Assembly: GCA_015709595.1 (NCBI GenBank)
Contig: CP054178.1
Coordinates: 1,617,205 to 1,681,204, forward strand
Direction of reading: 5' to 3'
Length of the DNA stretch: 64,000 nt
Source of the DNA: Phycisphaeraceae bacterium
Lineage (GTDB): Bacteria; Planctomycetota; Phycisphaerae; Phycisphaerales; SM1A02
The position numbers were made by a program, and so were the translations under genes. Positions 3 to 41,145 of this stretch are shown piece by piece. The notes under the pieces are model-generated. The model worked only from the letters and a program-made list of their open reading frames with translations, was not told the origin of the DNA and did not search any database. How positions within the stretch are numbered: position 1 is the stretch's first letter; every line of letters begins with the position of its first letter.

Positions 3-593
3 GTGGACAACGTGGAGCACCTGTTCATCCGCGACCTGGCTCCGGGCGCCTACGTGCTGCGCGTCACCCGCGCCTCCGACGGGCTGGAGCCCTGGGACGC
101 CGCCCTCGCCTGGCTCACCGAGCCGGACAGCGTCGATCCCGCCGCCCTGACCGGGTTCACCATGATCCGCGGCACGCATACCGGCGGCGGGCTGACCGAC
201 CTGACCGCGTCGGACAATCAGTACCTGCGCACGCGCTCCGGGTTCGGCAACACCTTCACCGATCTGCACAGCATGGAGATCATCGTCAACGCCCAGACCG
301 CCTCCGCCAACCGGCGCATCCTGCAGCTCACCGTTGAGTCCAGCATCAGTCACGCCGCCGGCGGCACCGCGCGCATCCGTCTGCGCAACCGCAACACCAC
401 GCAGTTCGAGCAGGTTGGCATTCACGCGGTCGGACAGTCGGACTTCGTCTTCCGCACGCTGATCACGAACCCGGCCAACTACGTCGGGTCAGGCGGCGAG
501 GTGGACGTCTCCATCCGCCACATCGTGGTCGTGCCGATCTTCGCCTTCCAGTTCAACTCGTTCTTCGACGAGGTGAAGGTCGTCGTCAACTGA
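3..593 (+). CDS. Secreted/surface protein, C-terminal part (5' truncated)
   Basis: The frame is already open at the left edge, so the N-terminus lies outside the window and the GTG at the first codon is not a real start. The first 40 residues (NVEHLFIRDLAPGAYVLRV) resemble the end of extracellular peptidase or beta-sandwich modules common in planctomycete surface proteins. From about residue 56 a roughly 135-residue domain begins with RGTHTGGG and ends with VVVPIFAFQFNSFFDEVKV. The same domain closes the 945-residue protein at 14332-17169 (RGTHLGGG ... VVVPVFAFFFNCEFDQI). The domain has no catalytic motif I recognise; its terminal position in two secreted proteins suggests a surface-attachment or sorting role, which is inference. 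Coding is certain, the function is not. Confidence 0.75.
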   Translation: MDNVEHLFIRDLAPGAYVLRVTRASDGLEPWDAALAWLTEPDSVDPAALTGFTMIRGTHTGGGLTDLTASDNQYLRTRSGFGNTFTDLHSMEIIVNAQTASANRRILQLTVESSISHAAGGTARIRLRNRNTTQFEQVGIHAVGQSDFVFRTLITNPANYVGSGGEVDVSIRHIVVVPIFAFQFNSFFDEVKVVVN

Positions 594-2409: not shown

Positions 2410-2874
2410 CTATCGAACCTCGGCCAGCAGCTCCACCTCCACGGTGGCGCCGAGGGGCAGGGCGATGGACCCCACCGCGGCCCGGGCGTGCCGACCTTGC
2501 TCGCCGAACACCTGCTGGAGCAGCTCGCTGGCCCCGTTGGCGACCTTGGGCTGATCGGTGAAGCCGGCGTCGCAGGCCACCCACACCCCAACGCGAACGA
2601 TGCGGACCACGCGCCCCAGATCGCCATCGAGCATGCCCGCCAGCACCGCCAGCCCGTTGATGGCGCACTGGCGGGCGGCCTGCTGGGCCTGTTCAATCGA
2701 TTGGGCCGAGGGGACGGGCCCGGACCACGCCAGAGCGCCGTCGCGGATGGGCACCTGGCCGCTCACGTAGATCAGGTTGCCGGTTCGCACGGCCGGGACA
2801 TAGGCCGCCACGGGCTTGGGGGGCTGGGGGAGTGTGATGCCAAGTTCCTGCAACCGCTGATGGGGGGTGGGCAC
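2410..2874 (-). CDS. RidA/YjgF-family protein (reactive imine deaminase-like)
   Basis: A 154-residue member of the RidA (YER057c/UK114) family, which in its best known form hydrolyses reactive enamine/imine intermediates released by PLP enzymes. Visible features: GNLIYVSGQVPIRDGAL near residue 32, the helix with AARQCAINGLAVLAG, and the C-terminal block HARAAVGSIALPLGATVEVEL, where the Arg of HARAAVG matches the carboxylate-binding Arg of active members. The N-terminal extension (RLQELGITLPQPPKPVAAYVP) is typical of the YjgF/RutC-like subgroup of about 150 residues. It is single-domain, cytoplasmic, and first in a probable two-gene unit with the small protein downstream. Confidence 0.88.
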   Translation of the reverse strand: MPTPHQRLQELGITLPQPPKPVAAYVPAVRTGNLIYVSGQVPIRDGALAWSGPVPSAQSIEQAQQAARQCAINGLAVLAGMLDGDLGRVVRIVRVGVWVACDAGFTDQPKVANGASELLQQVFGEQGRHARAAVGSIALPLGATVEVELLAEVR

Positions 2875-2955
2875 GGGGCGTGGCTCCAGAAGGGGGATGC
2901 GAGGGGTGTGGGTGAGAAGATGAAGAAATTTTCTGATTTCGTGGAACCCTGCATC

Positions 2956-2983
2956 TTGACAGGGGGTTCGTGCGGATTATCTT
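2956..2983 (+). promoter_or_regulatory. Possible sigma-70 promoter for an RNA
   Basis: TTGACA (2956-2961), a 16-base spacer and TATCTT (2978-2983). This is the best -35/-10 pair I see in the region. It sits directly upstream of the structured segment and no start codon follows in a protein-like frame. Confidence 0.3.
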
Positions 2984-2984
2984 G

Positions 2985-3190
2985 GTGGGTGGTGATGCGG
3001 TTTACCAGACGCACCACCTGACTGGCTCAGAAGGACTGAAGCGGCAGCATCATACGTCGGTATCAACGCTCTCATCCGCCGGACACGCCGGCCCTCATCA
3101 GCCGCCTCAGCCGACAACCCGAAGGCCACCTCTCGACGAAGGGTGGATCACCTGCCGGATGCACGGCGGGGTCCAGTGATCGAGAGGTCA
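2985..3190 (+). ncRNA. Candidate structured non-coding RNA, family unknown
   Basis: Four hairpins follow one another. H1: GGTGG...TGCG pairing with CGCA-CCACC (2988-3018). H2: GCTCAG-AAGGA-CTGaAGC (3025-3042). H3: GCCGG-ACACG-CCGGC (3078-3092). H4 is the strongest: ACCTCTCGA (3128-3136) pairs perfectly with TCGAGAGGT (3180-3188), and inside it TGGA/TCCA and CCTGCCG/CGGCGGG pair as well, giving a nested 61-base arm. I compared it by eye with SRP, tmRNA, RNase P and 6S signatures and found no convincing match. The conserved GGAA-type SRP loop is missing. Confidence 0.3.
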
Positions 3191-3787
3191 GGCAAGGCGG
3201 CCAACGTCGCACAATACGAAGAATCGGCATGGATTGCCGGGACCGGTCGGTCTGCGTGCCATTGTCACGCCCGTCCAGGGTGCCTCACGTCGCTCCAGCG
3301 TGGAGTGTCGTGATGCGTGCCGCGGACGTGCGAAGTGAGGTACGGGGTTCGCCGGGGGGCGGGTCGTGTGGGGTCGCTCGTGGGGGTGTCGCGTGGGTTC
3401 CTCGTGGGCGGGGAACGCGGATGAAGAGGTTCACATGAAGGCACGGGTCAGTTCCATCCAGGCAACCGCACGTGCGACGAACCTCGCCGGGCGGAGTGGG
3501 CGTGGGGTGGGTCTGACGGTCCATCATCCGCGGAGGGGTGTCGAGGGTGCCTCGTGTCAGGGGCATCGGCCCCTGGTCGGGCGTGCAATGGGCTTCCACT
3601 GCCGGTGGGGCGGATTGGAAGCGTCTTCGCGGGCCTCTCGATGGGCTGTCGGGGCACGGCGTGTCGGGGGAAAACCAGCGGCATCCCGGACTCGGGTGCC
3701 GTCGGCTTGGTCGGACGTGGCGGGGGAATCGTGGGGGGCGTCGTGTCGGGGTGTCGGCTGGTGTGGATGGTCTGTGGATTTCTGAGC

Positions 3788-3821
3788 CTGCGCGGGTCTC
3801 GCTTCCCGCGGGCCCGCGCAG
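3788..3821 (+). promoter_or_regulatory. Hairpin in leader of the prepilin-like gene
   Basis: CTGCGCGGG (3788-3796) pairs perfectly with CCCGCGCAG (3813-3821); a T-rich run with TTCGTTTTCATT follows about 10 bases later. It could terminate transcription arriving from the upstream region, or act as a leader element, since the gene start is only 60 bases away. Confidence 0.4.
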
Positions 3822-3880
3822 TTCGTCGGTTCGTTTTCATTCCCTTCATTCCCATTTTCTCGTTTCAAGGAGTCTGACAC

Positions 3881-4807
3881 ATGAGGAACGCACGACGGGG
3901 CTTCACGCTCATCGAGCTGCTGGTGGTGGTCGCCATCATCGCGCTGCTCGTCGGCCTGCTGCTTCCGGCCATCACCCAGGCGCGCCGCAACGCCGCCTCG
4001 ATGAAGGACGGGGCCCAGATCAAGCAGATCCACCAGTCCATGCTGGTGTTCGCCAACAACGATCGCGGCTACATGCCCACCCCGGGCCGCATCAACCGTC
4101 TCGCCACCGAACTGGGCCAGGTGCCCGGCTACGGCGACGAGGATCACACCCTCAACCACACCGCCTTCATCTACTCGGCCTGCATCGCGCAGAACTTCTT
4201 CAACACCGACATCGTGGTCGGCCCGACGGAAGTCAACCAGCGCATCCGCCAGAAGCTGGACTACAACTTCGCGGCGTACGCTCCGGCGGTGGATTCGTAC
4301 TGGGACACCACCTTCCGTGCCGGCATCAACGACGACACCAACGGCTCCAACACCTCCTACGCCCACGCCGGGCTGGCCGGTGACCGCCGCTCGGTGAAGT
4401 GGACCAACCGCACCGACGCGACCTACCCGGTCCTGGGCACCCGCGGCACGGGCGGCAACTACACCGGCGGCGCCTTCACCGGCCCCGGCGGTCAGCTGAC
4501 CGGCACCGAGTACGACCGCAGCCCCACCCTCGAGCTGCACGGCGCCAAGCGTCAGTGGAAGGGCAACATCTCCTTCGCCGACAACCACACCGAGCAGCTG
4601 GACACCTTCTTCCCCACCCTCACGGCGCACGACATGGGCGACGGCACGGGCAAGAAGAAGGACAACATCTTCTCCTGTGAGTTCCCCTCGGGCCCGGGCG
4701 GCAACACCCGGCACTCCGCGGGCGATGCGTTCCTCATGATCGGCCTCGCCGCCGGTCAGGGCGAACTCACCCTCGGCCCGATCTGGGATCCGCTGCTGAC
4801 CAACTGA
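3881..4807 (+). CDS. Prepilin-type N-terminal cleavage/methylation domain protein A
   Basis: A 308-residue type II pseudopilin-like protein. [20 protein letters not shown] at residues 5-24 is the prepilin leader: cleavage is expected after Gly7, with the conserved Glu at position 5 of the mature protein and a hydrophobic helix to about residue 30. The rest is a periplasmic/extracellular domain like the large planctomycete pseudopilin group. Near the C-terminal third, [14 protein letters not shown] resembles the G-x-x-xF-ADGH strand of that group. AAGGAG lies 9 bases before the ATG. The next gene is a paralogue sharing [16 protein letters not shown] and TSYAH, so the pair arose by tandem duplication. 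A secretion or surface-fibre role is inferred. Confidence 0.85.
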
Positions 4808-4988: not shown

Positions 4989-5840
4989 ATGAAGAATCGC
5001 GGCTTCACCCTGATCGAGCTGCTGGTGGTCATCGCGATCATCACGCTGCTCATGGGCATCCTGCTTCCCGCACTGGCCAAGGCCCGCGCCGCCGCCGTGC
5101 AGGTGAAGGACGCCACCCAGCTCACCCAGGTCTACAAGGCCATGGCGACGTTCGCCCGCCAGTTCAACGGCGTGTTCCCCAAGCCGGGCCTGATCAACAC
5201 GATCGGCACCGAGCCGGGCGTGGGCGCTGAGCAGATGGCGCTCAATCACTCCGGACCGATGTACTCGGCCTGCATCGCGCAGAACTTCTTCACCCCGGCG
5301 ATCGTCGTCAGCCCGTCGGAGCCCAACGGCCGCATCCTGGCCAAGAACGACTACAACCAGGAGGCCTACCGGCCCATCAACGACGTGTACTGGGACACCA
5401 CCTTCCAGACCGTCCTCAACACCCTGTGCCACACCTCCTACGCCCACAGCCCGCTGACGGGTCAGCGCGGTCAGCAGAACTGGCGCGACAACCTCGACTC
5501 CGAGTGGACCATGTTCAGCAACCGCGGCGTCGAGAATGGCGTGTTGACTTCCACGGTCTACGAGGCGTCGCTGACCCTCCAGATCCACGGCGGGCGCAAG
5601 CAGTGGGTCGGCAACATCTGCTACGCCGACGGCCACGTCAACGTCGAGGACTCCTTCCGCATTGAGGGCATCAACTTCCTCAATTCCGCCAGTGCCATCA
5701 CCCCGGACAACATCTTCGATGAACAGACCATCGCCCAGTCCGGCGGCGGGGGACGCGGATCGGGGTATGACCGCTGGCTGGTCATTTACACGATCGCCAA
5801 TCCCAACGGCCAGAACCTCAACGGCCTGCAGTGGGATTGA
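4989..5840 (+). CDS. Prepilin-type N-terminal cleavage/methylation domain protein B
   Basis: A 283-residue paralogue of the preceding gene. The leader is [20 protein letters not shown], with cleavage expected after Gly5. It shares long blocks with its neighbour ([29 protein letters not shown]), and WVGNICYADGHVNVEDSF near residue 210 gives a cleaner ADGH motif than in copy A. An in-frame ATG at 4911 would hide the leader behind 26 residues, so ATG at 4989, with GGAGCGAAG upstream, is the start. The 181-base gap between the two genes holds no gene. The two copies differ mostly in the central loop, as expected for subunits that have diverged to pair or to bind different partners. Confidence 0.87.
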   Translation: MKNRGFTLIELLVVIAIITLLMGILLPALAKARAAAVQVKDATQLTQVYKAMATFARQFNGVFPKPGLINTIGTEPGVGAEQMALNHSGPMYSACIAQNFFTPAIVVSPSEPNGRILAKNDYNQEAYRPINDVYWDTTFQTVLNTLCHTSYAHSPLTGQRGQQNWRDNLDSEWTMFSNRGVENGVLTSTVYEASLTLQIHGGRKQWVGNICYADGHVNVEDSFRIEGINFLNSASAITPDNIFDEQTIAQSGGGGRGSGYDRWLVIYTIANPNGQNLNGLQWD

Positions 5841-41063: not shown

Positions 41064-41145
41064 GCGGGCGTGGCGAAACTGGCAGACGCGCCAGATTTAG
41101 GTTCTGGTGGGGCAACCCGTGGAGGTTCGAGTCCTCCCGCCCGCA
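41064..41145 (+). tRNA. tRNA-Leu (anticodon UAG)
   Basis: Full cloverleaf of 82 bases. Acceptor GCGGGCG (41064-41070) pairs with CGCCCGC (41138-41144), discriminator A. The anticodon arm CCAGA-TTTAGGT-TCTGG gives anticodon TAG. A long variable arm, as in Leu, follows, then T-arm GGAGG-TTCGAGT-CCTCC. CCA is not encoded. A small TCGGGC-TGC-GCCCGA hairpin at 41162-41176 follows. Confidence 0.96.

What the first reader, a model, noticed from the sequence alone, without database searches (positions are those of the whole stretch)
2956..3190. Orphan structured RNA candidate with its own promoter
TTGACA-16-TATCTT followed by four stable hairpins, the last a nested arm with a perfect 9-pair base and two inner helices. 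No coding frame fits. It does not show the SRP GGAA loop, tmRNA or RNase P cores. It may be a lineage-specific small RNA.
Basis: partly seen in the sequence, partly recalled or inferred. Interest (0 to 1): 0.6.

Follow-up and report, generated by a model that had tools for sequence, protein, structure and literature searches.

The report
New RNA leader before pilin genes
Just in front of a pair of pilus-protein genes in a little-studied group of planctomycete bacteria lies a conserved folded RNA that no RNA family library describes, probably the start of the pilus gene's own message and a control point for surface proteins.

Summary
The promoter is real, and a real structured RNA lies downstream of it. 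It is neither orphan nor quite the shape proposed. The conserved core is window 3033-3121 (+): a long-range stem P2 enclosing hairpin P3, with conserved CUYAU and UCAU in the loop between them and an invariant GACA right after P2. A variable 5' hairpin (P1) precedes it. On 89 aligned copies all 14 pairs show two-sided changes, 93.4% of cells pair, and 0/500 shuffles match. The nine strongest covarying column pairs are all structure pairs. Rfam shows nothing at the element in the window or in 31 related loci. Of 77 copies with enough flank, 61 sit upstream of a prepilin gene, usually a tandem pair, even where the neighbour RidA is flipped or absent. Fourteen precede other exported proteins. Conserved intrinsic terminators are absent (6 of 61 leaders, 2.8 expected). 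Best reading: a new cis-acting 5'-leader RNA of prepilin and secreted-protein mRNAs in one order of Planctomycetota. Effector and direction of control are unknown.

The parts
2956..2983 (+). Promoter TTGACA-16-TATCTT
   Evidence: 10 of 12 matches, 0.1 expected; same box upstream of 61 of 80 homologous copies, spacer 16 in 56 of 61
2988..3018 (+). P1, 5' hairpin close behind the expected start of transcription (2988-2993/3013-3018 and 2997-2999/3010-3012)
   Evidence: In the fold; hairpins of variable sequence in this place in relatives (mean z -1.1 over 78 copies, z below -1 in 42). Not tested for covariation. Low pair probability (0.05-0.17) when 2984-3130 is folded alone
3033..3121 (+). Conserved RNA core
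   Evidence: CM hit 66.1 bits, E 5e-16 with R1, whose seed includes this sequence; all 14 modelled pairs covary over 89 copies
3033..3045 (+). 5' strand of long-range stem P2 (GGaCUGAaGCGGC)
   Evidence: P2a and P2b pairs: 9 of 9 with two-sided changes; window pairs listed
3101..3112 (+). 3' strand of P2 (GCCGCcUCAGCC)
   Evidence: As above
3050..3055 (+). Single-stranded UCAUAC, recurrent in many relatives
   Evidence: listing
3071..3075 (+). Conserved CUCAU 5' of P3
   Evidence: Columns 78-82: C 0.85, T 1.00, A 0.95, T 0.98 of 65 non-redundant copies
3078..3092 (+). P3 hairpin GCCGG-ACACG-CCGGC
   Evidence: 5 of 5 pairs with two-sided changes, 96.4% of cells paired
3095..3098 (+). Conserved UCAU 3' of P3
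   Evidence: Columns 155-158 (T 0.86, A 0.85, T 0.86)
3113..3116 (+). Near-invariant GACA directly after P2
   Evidence: G 1.00, A 0.98, C 1.00, A 1.00 of 65 copies
3128..3188 (+).
   Evidence: no counterpart seen by eye in relatives
3122..3880 (+). Rest of the presumed leader, variable in length and sequence among relatives
   Evidence: Core-to-start distances; no terminator-like site on + between 2990 and 3800
3881..4807 (+). First prepilin-like gene of the tandem pair (308 aa)
   Evidence: PF07963 N_methyl, 34 bits against cut-off 21.2; TIGR02532 over its cut-off
4989..5840 (+). Second prepilin-like gene
   Evidence: PF07963, 34.2 bits; TIGR02532 over its cut-off

Best explanation
The element is the 5' end of a long untranslated leader of the tandem prepilin mRNA, a cis-acting regulatory RNA. 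Transcription starts a few bases after the TATCTT box. The RNA folds into P1 and then the P2/P3 core. The conserved unpaired bases on both sides of P3 and the GACA abutting P2 form a recognition site for a ligand or a protein that sets how much of the message is made, kept or translated. The same leader has been placed in front of other exported proteins in a few genomes, so it probably reports one signal tied to surface-protein production. Shown here: the promoter box, the structure by covariation, the place upstream of prepilin and exported-protein genes, and the lack of a conserved terminator. Inferred: co-transcription with the gene, that the conserved loop is a binding site, and that it regulates. 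Unknown: the effector and the direction of control.
For: Covariation: 14 of 14 pairs with two-sided changes, 162 such cells against 32.9 in shuffles, 0/500; the top 9 of all column pairs are structure pairs. Conserved bases lie in loops and next to P2, as in aptamers and protein sites. Genomic partner: of 80 copies examined, 3 have under 300 nt of flank; of the other 77, 61 have a prepilin motif 222-1041 nt downstream, 14 precede other genes (exported by eye), and 2 have neither. The partner holds where RidA is on the other strand (L109, L112, L152-L156, L158, L178, L180) or not found (L184-L186). In 8 of the 15 non-pilin copies listed the core lies 108-115 nt before the start codon. No conserved intrinsic terminator: 6 of 61 pilin leaders, 2.8 expected, one within 100 nt of the core.
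Against: No transcript data. The core is 195-747 nt from the start codon in the pilin leaders where a start was found, far for a simple ribosome-site switch, and no shared expression platform was found. The motif GACAACCU can pair with the ribosome-binding site (AGGUUGUC) in one group of compact leaders, but own-pair duplexes are not stronger than swapped ones in the non-pilin set (1620 of 2000 permutations as strong). They are only slightly stronger in the pilin set (11 of 2000), where the strongest cases look like G+C effects.
Confidence: 0.65

Rival explanations
1. A free-standing trans-acting small RNA that happens to be encoded in front of the prepilin pair; its UCAU and CUYAU loops pair with target mRNAs.
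For: Own promoter; variable distance to the gene; conserved unpaired C/U-rich loops.
Against: Extra copies also sit before exported-protein genes, at near-fixed 108-115 nt from the start codon in 8 of 15; no conserved terminator after the core; 75 of 77 copies precede prepilin or exported-protein genes.
Confidence: 0.14
2. A 5' stabiliser: the P1 hairpin and core only protect an abundant, long-lived pilin mRNA from decay, without sensing anything, as the ompA leader does in E. coli (recalled).
For: Core sits at the very 5' end behind a strong promoter; hairpins at the P1 place; the genes served are surface proteins likely made in bulk (inference).
Against: A stabiliser need not keep particular bases in loops, yet T79, A81, T82 and GACA are 0.95-1.00 conserved over 65 copies.
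Confidence: 0.2
3. Chance fold in a GC-rich spacer.
For: Modest folding z-score for the window alone (-2.06); the P2 pairs have probability of only about 0.2 when 2984-3130 is folded alone.
Against: Covariation 0/500.
Confidence: 0.01

Closest known systems
Cyclic-di-GMP-I (GEMM) riboswitches upstream of pilin and adhesin genes
   Same: Structured RNA in the leader of pilin, adhesin or secreted-protein mRNAs (known association, recalled; titles and abstract starts seen in the listing)
   Different: No match to any c-di-GMP family in Rfam scans of window and relatives up to E 1 or 10; different helices and conserved bases (recalled comparison)
Rhodopirellula-1 motif (Weinberg et al. 2010, PMC2864571)
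   Same: Candidate cis-regulatory motif listed for Planctomycetes (table passage seen)
   Different: Its alignment is in supplementary files that I could not open; listed taxa are Proteobacteria and Planctomycetes, whereas this core hits 2 of 294 genomes drawn across the phylum
ompA-type 5' stabiliser leaders (recalled)
   Same: 5'-terminal hairpin at the head of the mRNA of a surface protein
   Different: Here a covarying core with near-invariant loop bases follows
Bacterial small SRP RNA RF00169
   Same: Superficial GGTTTACCAG and AGAAGGA letters near 3000-3035 suggested it
   Different: The genome has its SRP RNA elsewhere, G000:C1:161275-161371, 47.2 bits; no SRP hit here

Membership tests
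Any Rfam 15 family | Score at or above a family's gathering cut-off at this locus | tested here: not met
   Only a tRNA at 41064 in the window; at E up to 10 only chance hits on 2800-3900; no hit at the element in 19 + 12 related loci at E up to 1
Signal recognition particle RNA | Match to RF00169 here, or no other copy in the genome | tested here: not met
tmRNA | ARAGORN or Rfam match | tested here: not met
RNase P RNA and 6S RNA | Rfam match here | tested here: not met
   whether the genome has them elsewhere was not tested
cis-acting leader RNAs (as a kind) | Conserved place upstream of one kind of gene on the same strand | tested here: met
   75 of 77 copies with enough flank
cis-acting leader RNAs (as a kind) | Covarying secondary structure | tested here: met
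cis-acting leader RNAs (as a kind) | Same transcript as the gene | not testable with these tools
   No RNA data; absence of a conserved terminator is consistent with it
Riboswitches | Binds a small ligand | not testable with these tools
   No binding data
Riboswitches | Expression platform: terminator or masked ribosome site | tested here: inconclusive
   Terminator-like sites in 6 of 61 pilin leaders; ribosome-site pairing in one group of compact leaders, not general
Rhodopirellula-1 motif | Match to its published alignment | not testable with these tools
   Alignment not held; only the table line was seen

The most novel reading that the evidence does not exclude
A new riboswitch class of one planctomycete order whose P2/P3 inner loop binds a signal of the attached or dispersing state (for example a cyclic dinucleotide) and switches the tandem prepilin operon and, where copied, beta-helix and FG-GAP exported proteins.
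Probability: 0.25. Interest if true: 0.8.

Novelty: new member of a known kind. Interest (0 to 1): 0.6.

Why it matters
Few regulatory RNAs have been described for Planctomycetota (8 distinct sRNAs for the whole PVC group in the table of PMC9029176, passage seen). A strongly covarying leader tied to pilus and exported proteins gives a concrete, testable handle on how these bacteria control their surface. If the core senses a small molecule, it would be a new aptamer class; if it binds a protein, that protein would be a new RNA-binding regulator. The covariance model also shows that such a leader can stand before unrelated exported-protein genes as well as pilin genes.

Tried and rejected
SRP RNA: suspected from letters near 3000-3035; rejected because the genome's SRP RNA lies elsewhere. 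DNA similarity in relatives: blastn of 2940-3250 over 61 genomes gave only chance-level short matches outside the own locus (best E 0.003 per genome), and plasmids gave none; homology was found instead through the neighbouring RidA gene.

RidA as the partner: dropped, because the RNA keeps the prepilin pair when RidA is flipped or absent. RNAalifold on the gapped alignments predicted only fragments, four pairs each time, so the structure was named by hand from the paired segments and then tested. Intrinsic terminator as the switch: not conserved. Masking of the ribosome site by the GACAACCU segment: present in one group of compact leaders, not supported as a rule. A second pairing of GGCA with UGCC was considered by eye; the covariation scan gave no support for it.

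Rows dropped before counts: L181 and L182 (weak hits, E 0.005, no promoter box, no prepilin) were left out but are counted in the 77 and the 80; L148, L150 and L163 lack flank. One search used 65 of 89 rows after an 85% redundancy cut. R1 and R2 seeds include many of the sequences later counted. A5 was fitted to the structure, so its counts lean towards it; the earlier MAFFT alignment A2 shows the same pairs by eye.

Full report
The observation. The window carries TTGACA-16-TATCTT at 2956-2983 on the + strand, 10 of 12 matches, one found against 0.1 expected in shuffles. The RNA that would start just after it folds at -82.1 kcal/mol over 2990-3195, z -2.06, with 4 of 200 shuffles as good. That alone is weak evidence. 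Rfam gives nothing there at gathering scores, nor at E up to 10 beyond chance hits. ARAGORN sees no tRNA or tmRNA there. The genome's SRP RNA lies elsewhere. The 9-pair base of the last arm (3128-3136/3180-3188) is real.

Finding relatives. Plain DNA similarity failed in 60 relatives (55 of 61 genomes including the own one had a match at E up to 1, but outside the own locus only short chance-level ones). The neighbour on the other strand (2410-2874) is a RidA-type protein (PF01042 and PF14588) found in 56 of 61 genomes. Taking the DNA in front of RidA in the 30 loci held (the own one included) showed the same order in most: RidA on -, TTGAC-16-TANNNT, a spacer, then a prepilin gene on +. By eye the spacer begins with a shared RNA.

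The structure. Sixteen cores were aligned and made into model R1 with a hand-named structure. R1 then found the core in 72 of 151 genomes of the family, with up to 5 copies per genome (strict filters). On 56 aligned copies 14 of 14 pairs show changes on both sides, 93.1% of cells pair, 0/500 shuffles reach this. On 89 copies the figures are 14 of 14, 93.4%, and 162 two-sided cells against 32.9, 0/500. A scan of all column pairs on 65 non-redundant copies puts structure pairs in the first nine places, and 11 of the first 14. In the window, P2 is 3033-3034/3111-3112, 3036-3039/3107-3110 and 3041-3045/3101-3105; P3 is 3078-3082/3088-3092. Folded alone as 2984-3130, energy rules favour another fold (P2 pair probability about 0.2), while the fold of 2990-3195 shows P1, P2, P3 and the last arm. 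The comparative evidence decides for P2 and P3. Conserved unpaired bases are CUYAU before P3, UCAU after it, and GACA right behind P2.

Where it occurs. With model R2 and laxer filters, 20 of 40 genomes have it: 17 of 25 of the own family (the own genome included) and 3 of 15 of other families in the order (my count of its table). Of 294 genomes drawn across the phylum only the own one and one of the same order match. A DNA pattern scan of 84,980 named species genomes gave 11 stretches: ten from contigs labelled Planctomycetota and one labelled Gemmatimonadetes on a 4.1-kb contig. The pattern was strict, so this is a lower bound. In family-f4 genomes (L184-L186) P2 has wholly different letters but pairs, GACA follows (read for L184), and a prepilin gene follows without RidA nearby.

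What it precedes. I examined 80 copies. Three have under 300 nt of downstream sequence. Of the other 77, 61 have a prepilin motif 222-1041 nt downstream, usually followed by a second one about 1-1.4 kb further, as in the window (3881 and 4989). Fourteen (13 in L095-L107, plus L160) precede other genes whose products begin, by eye, with a signal peptide. Of ten such proteins scanned, seven have Pfam matches: beta-helix, FG-GAP repeats, beta-propeller or NHL repeats, Chlamydia-PMP repeats, or DUF7453, four of them with a dockerin domain; three have none. In 8 of the 15 non-pilin copies (L118 included) the core ends 108-115 nt before the start codon. For L101 the automatic choice was a spurious frame; the gene taken is the one about 527 nt downstream. 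The two remaining copies (L181, L182; E 0.005) have neither partner nor promoter box and may be false hits.

The promoter travels with the RNA. TTGNNN-15..18-TANNNT is found within 170 nt upstream in 61 of 80 copies, spacer 16 in 56 of 61. Among the 19 without it are several whose listed sequence shows TTGAC with a longer spacer.

How it may work. The leader runs 195-747 nt from core to start codon in the pilin loci where a start was found; in the window it is about 760 nt. Terminator-like sites occur in 6 of 61 pilin leaders, 2.8 expected, one near the core, so there is no sign that transcription regularly ends after the RNA. In some compact leaders GACAACCU can mask the ribosome site, but a permutation test gives no general support. 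I therefore take the core as a cis-acting leader element with a recognition site in the P2/P3 loop. Whether it senses a ligand, binds a protein or only protects the mRNA cannot be settled from sequence.

Novelty. No Rfam family matches the element in the window or in 31 related loci. Literature searches for planctomycete RNA motifs, structured or noncoding RNAs and pilin leaders listed no paper describing it; for most I saw only the listing with titles and abstract starts. In PMC2864571 I saw found passages, and in PMC9029176 one passage. The one candidate for overlap, Rhodopirellula-1, could not be compared because its alignment is not held here. The library lacks most subscription papers, so this is no proof of absence in print.

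Noticed in passing
window 3788-3830: GC-rich hairpin CTGCGCGGG...CCCGCGCAG shortly upstream of the prepilin start; a similar 'gagcctgtgcggg...' hairpin lies before the start in G011, G036 and G080 but not in most relatives.
   Followed up: partly
L095, L098, L100, L104, L105 next to the promoter; L153-L156, L158, L163, L178, L180 further upstream: A TCGGAC element recurs, next to the -35 box in non-pilin copies and tens of bases further upstream in one pilin lineage; possibly an activator site.
   Followed up: no
promoters of pilin copies: GGAAC directly before TTGAC and CGRA before the -10 box are common, so a promoter for a specialised sigma factor cannot be excluded.
   Followed up: no
L118 (JAPULP010000336.1): A MAG contig labelled Gemmatimonadetes carries a copy with a gene much like the planctomycete one in L107; mis-binning or transfer.
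   Followed up: no
L100 477-573 (-): Bacterial small SRP RNA at 37.2 bits, just below the gathering score, about 3.4 kb from a copy of the element.
   Followed up: no
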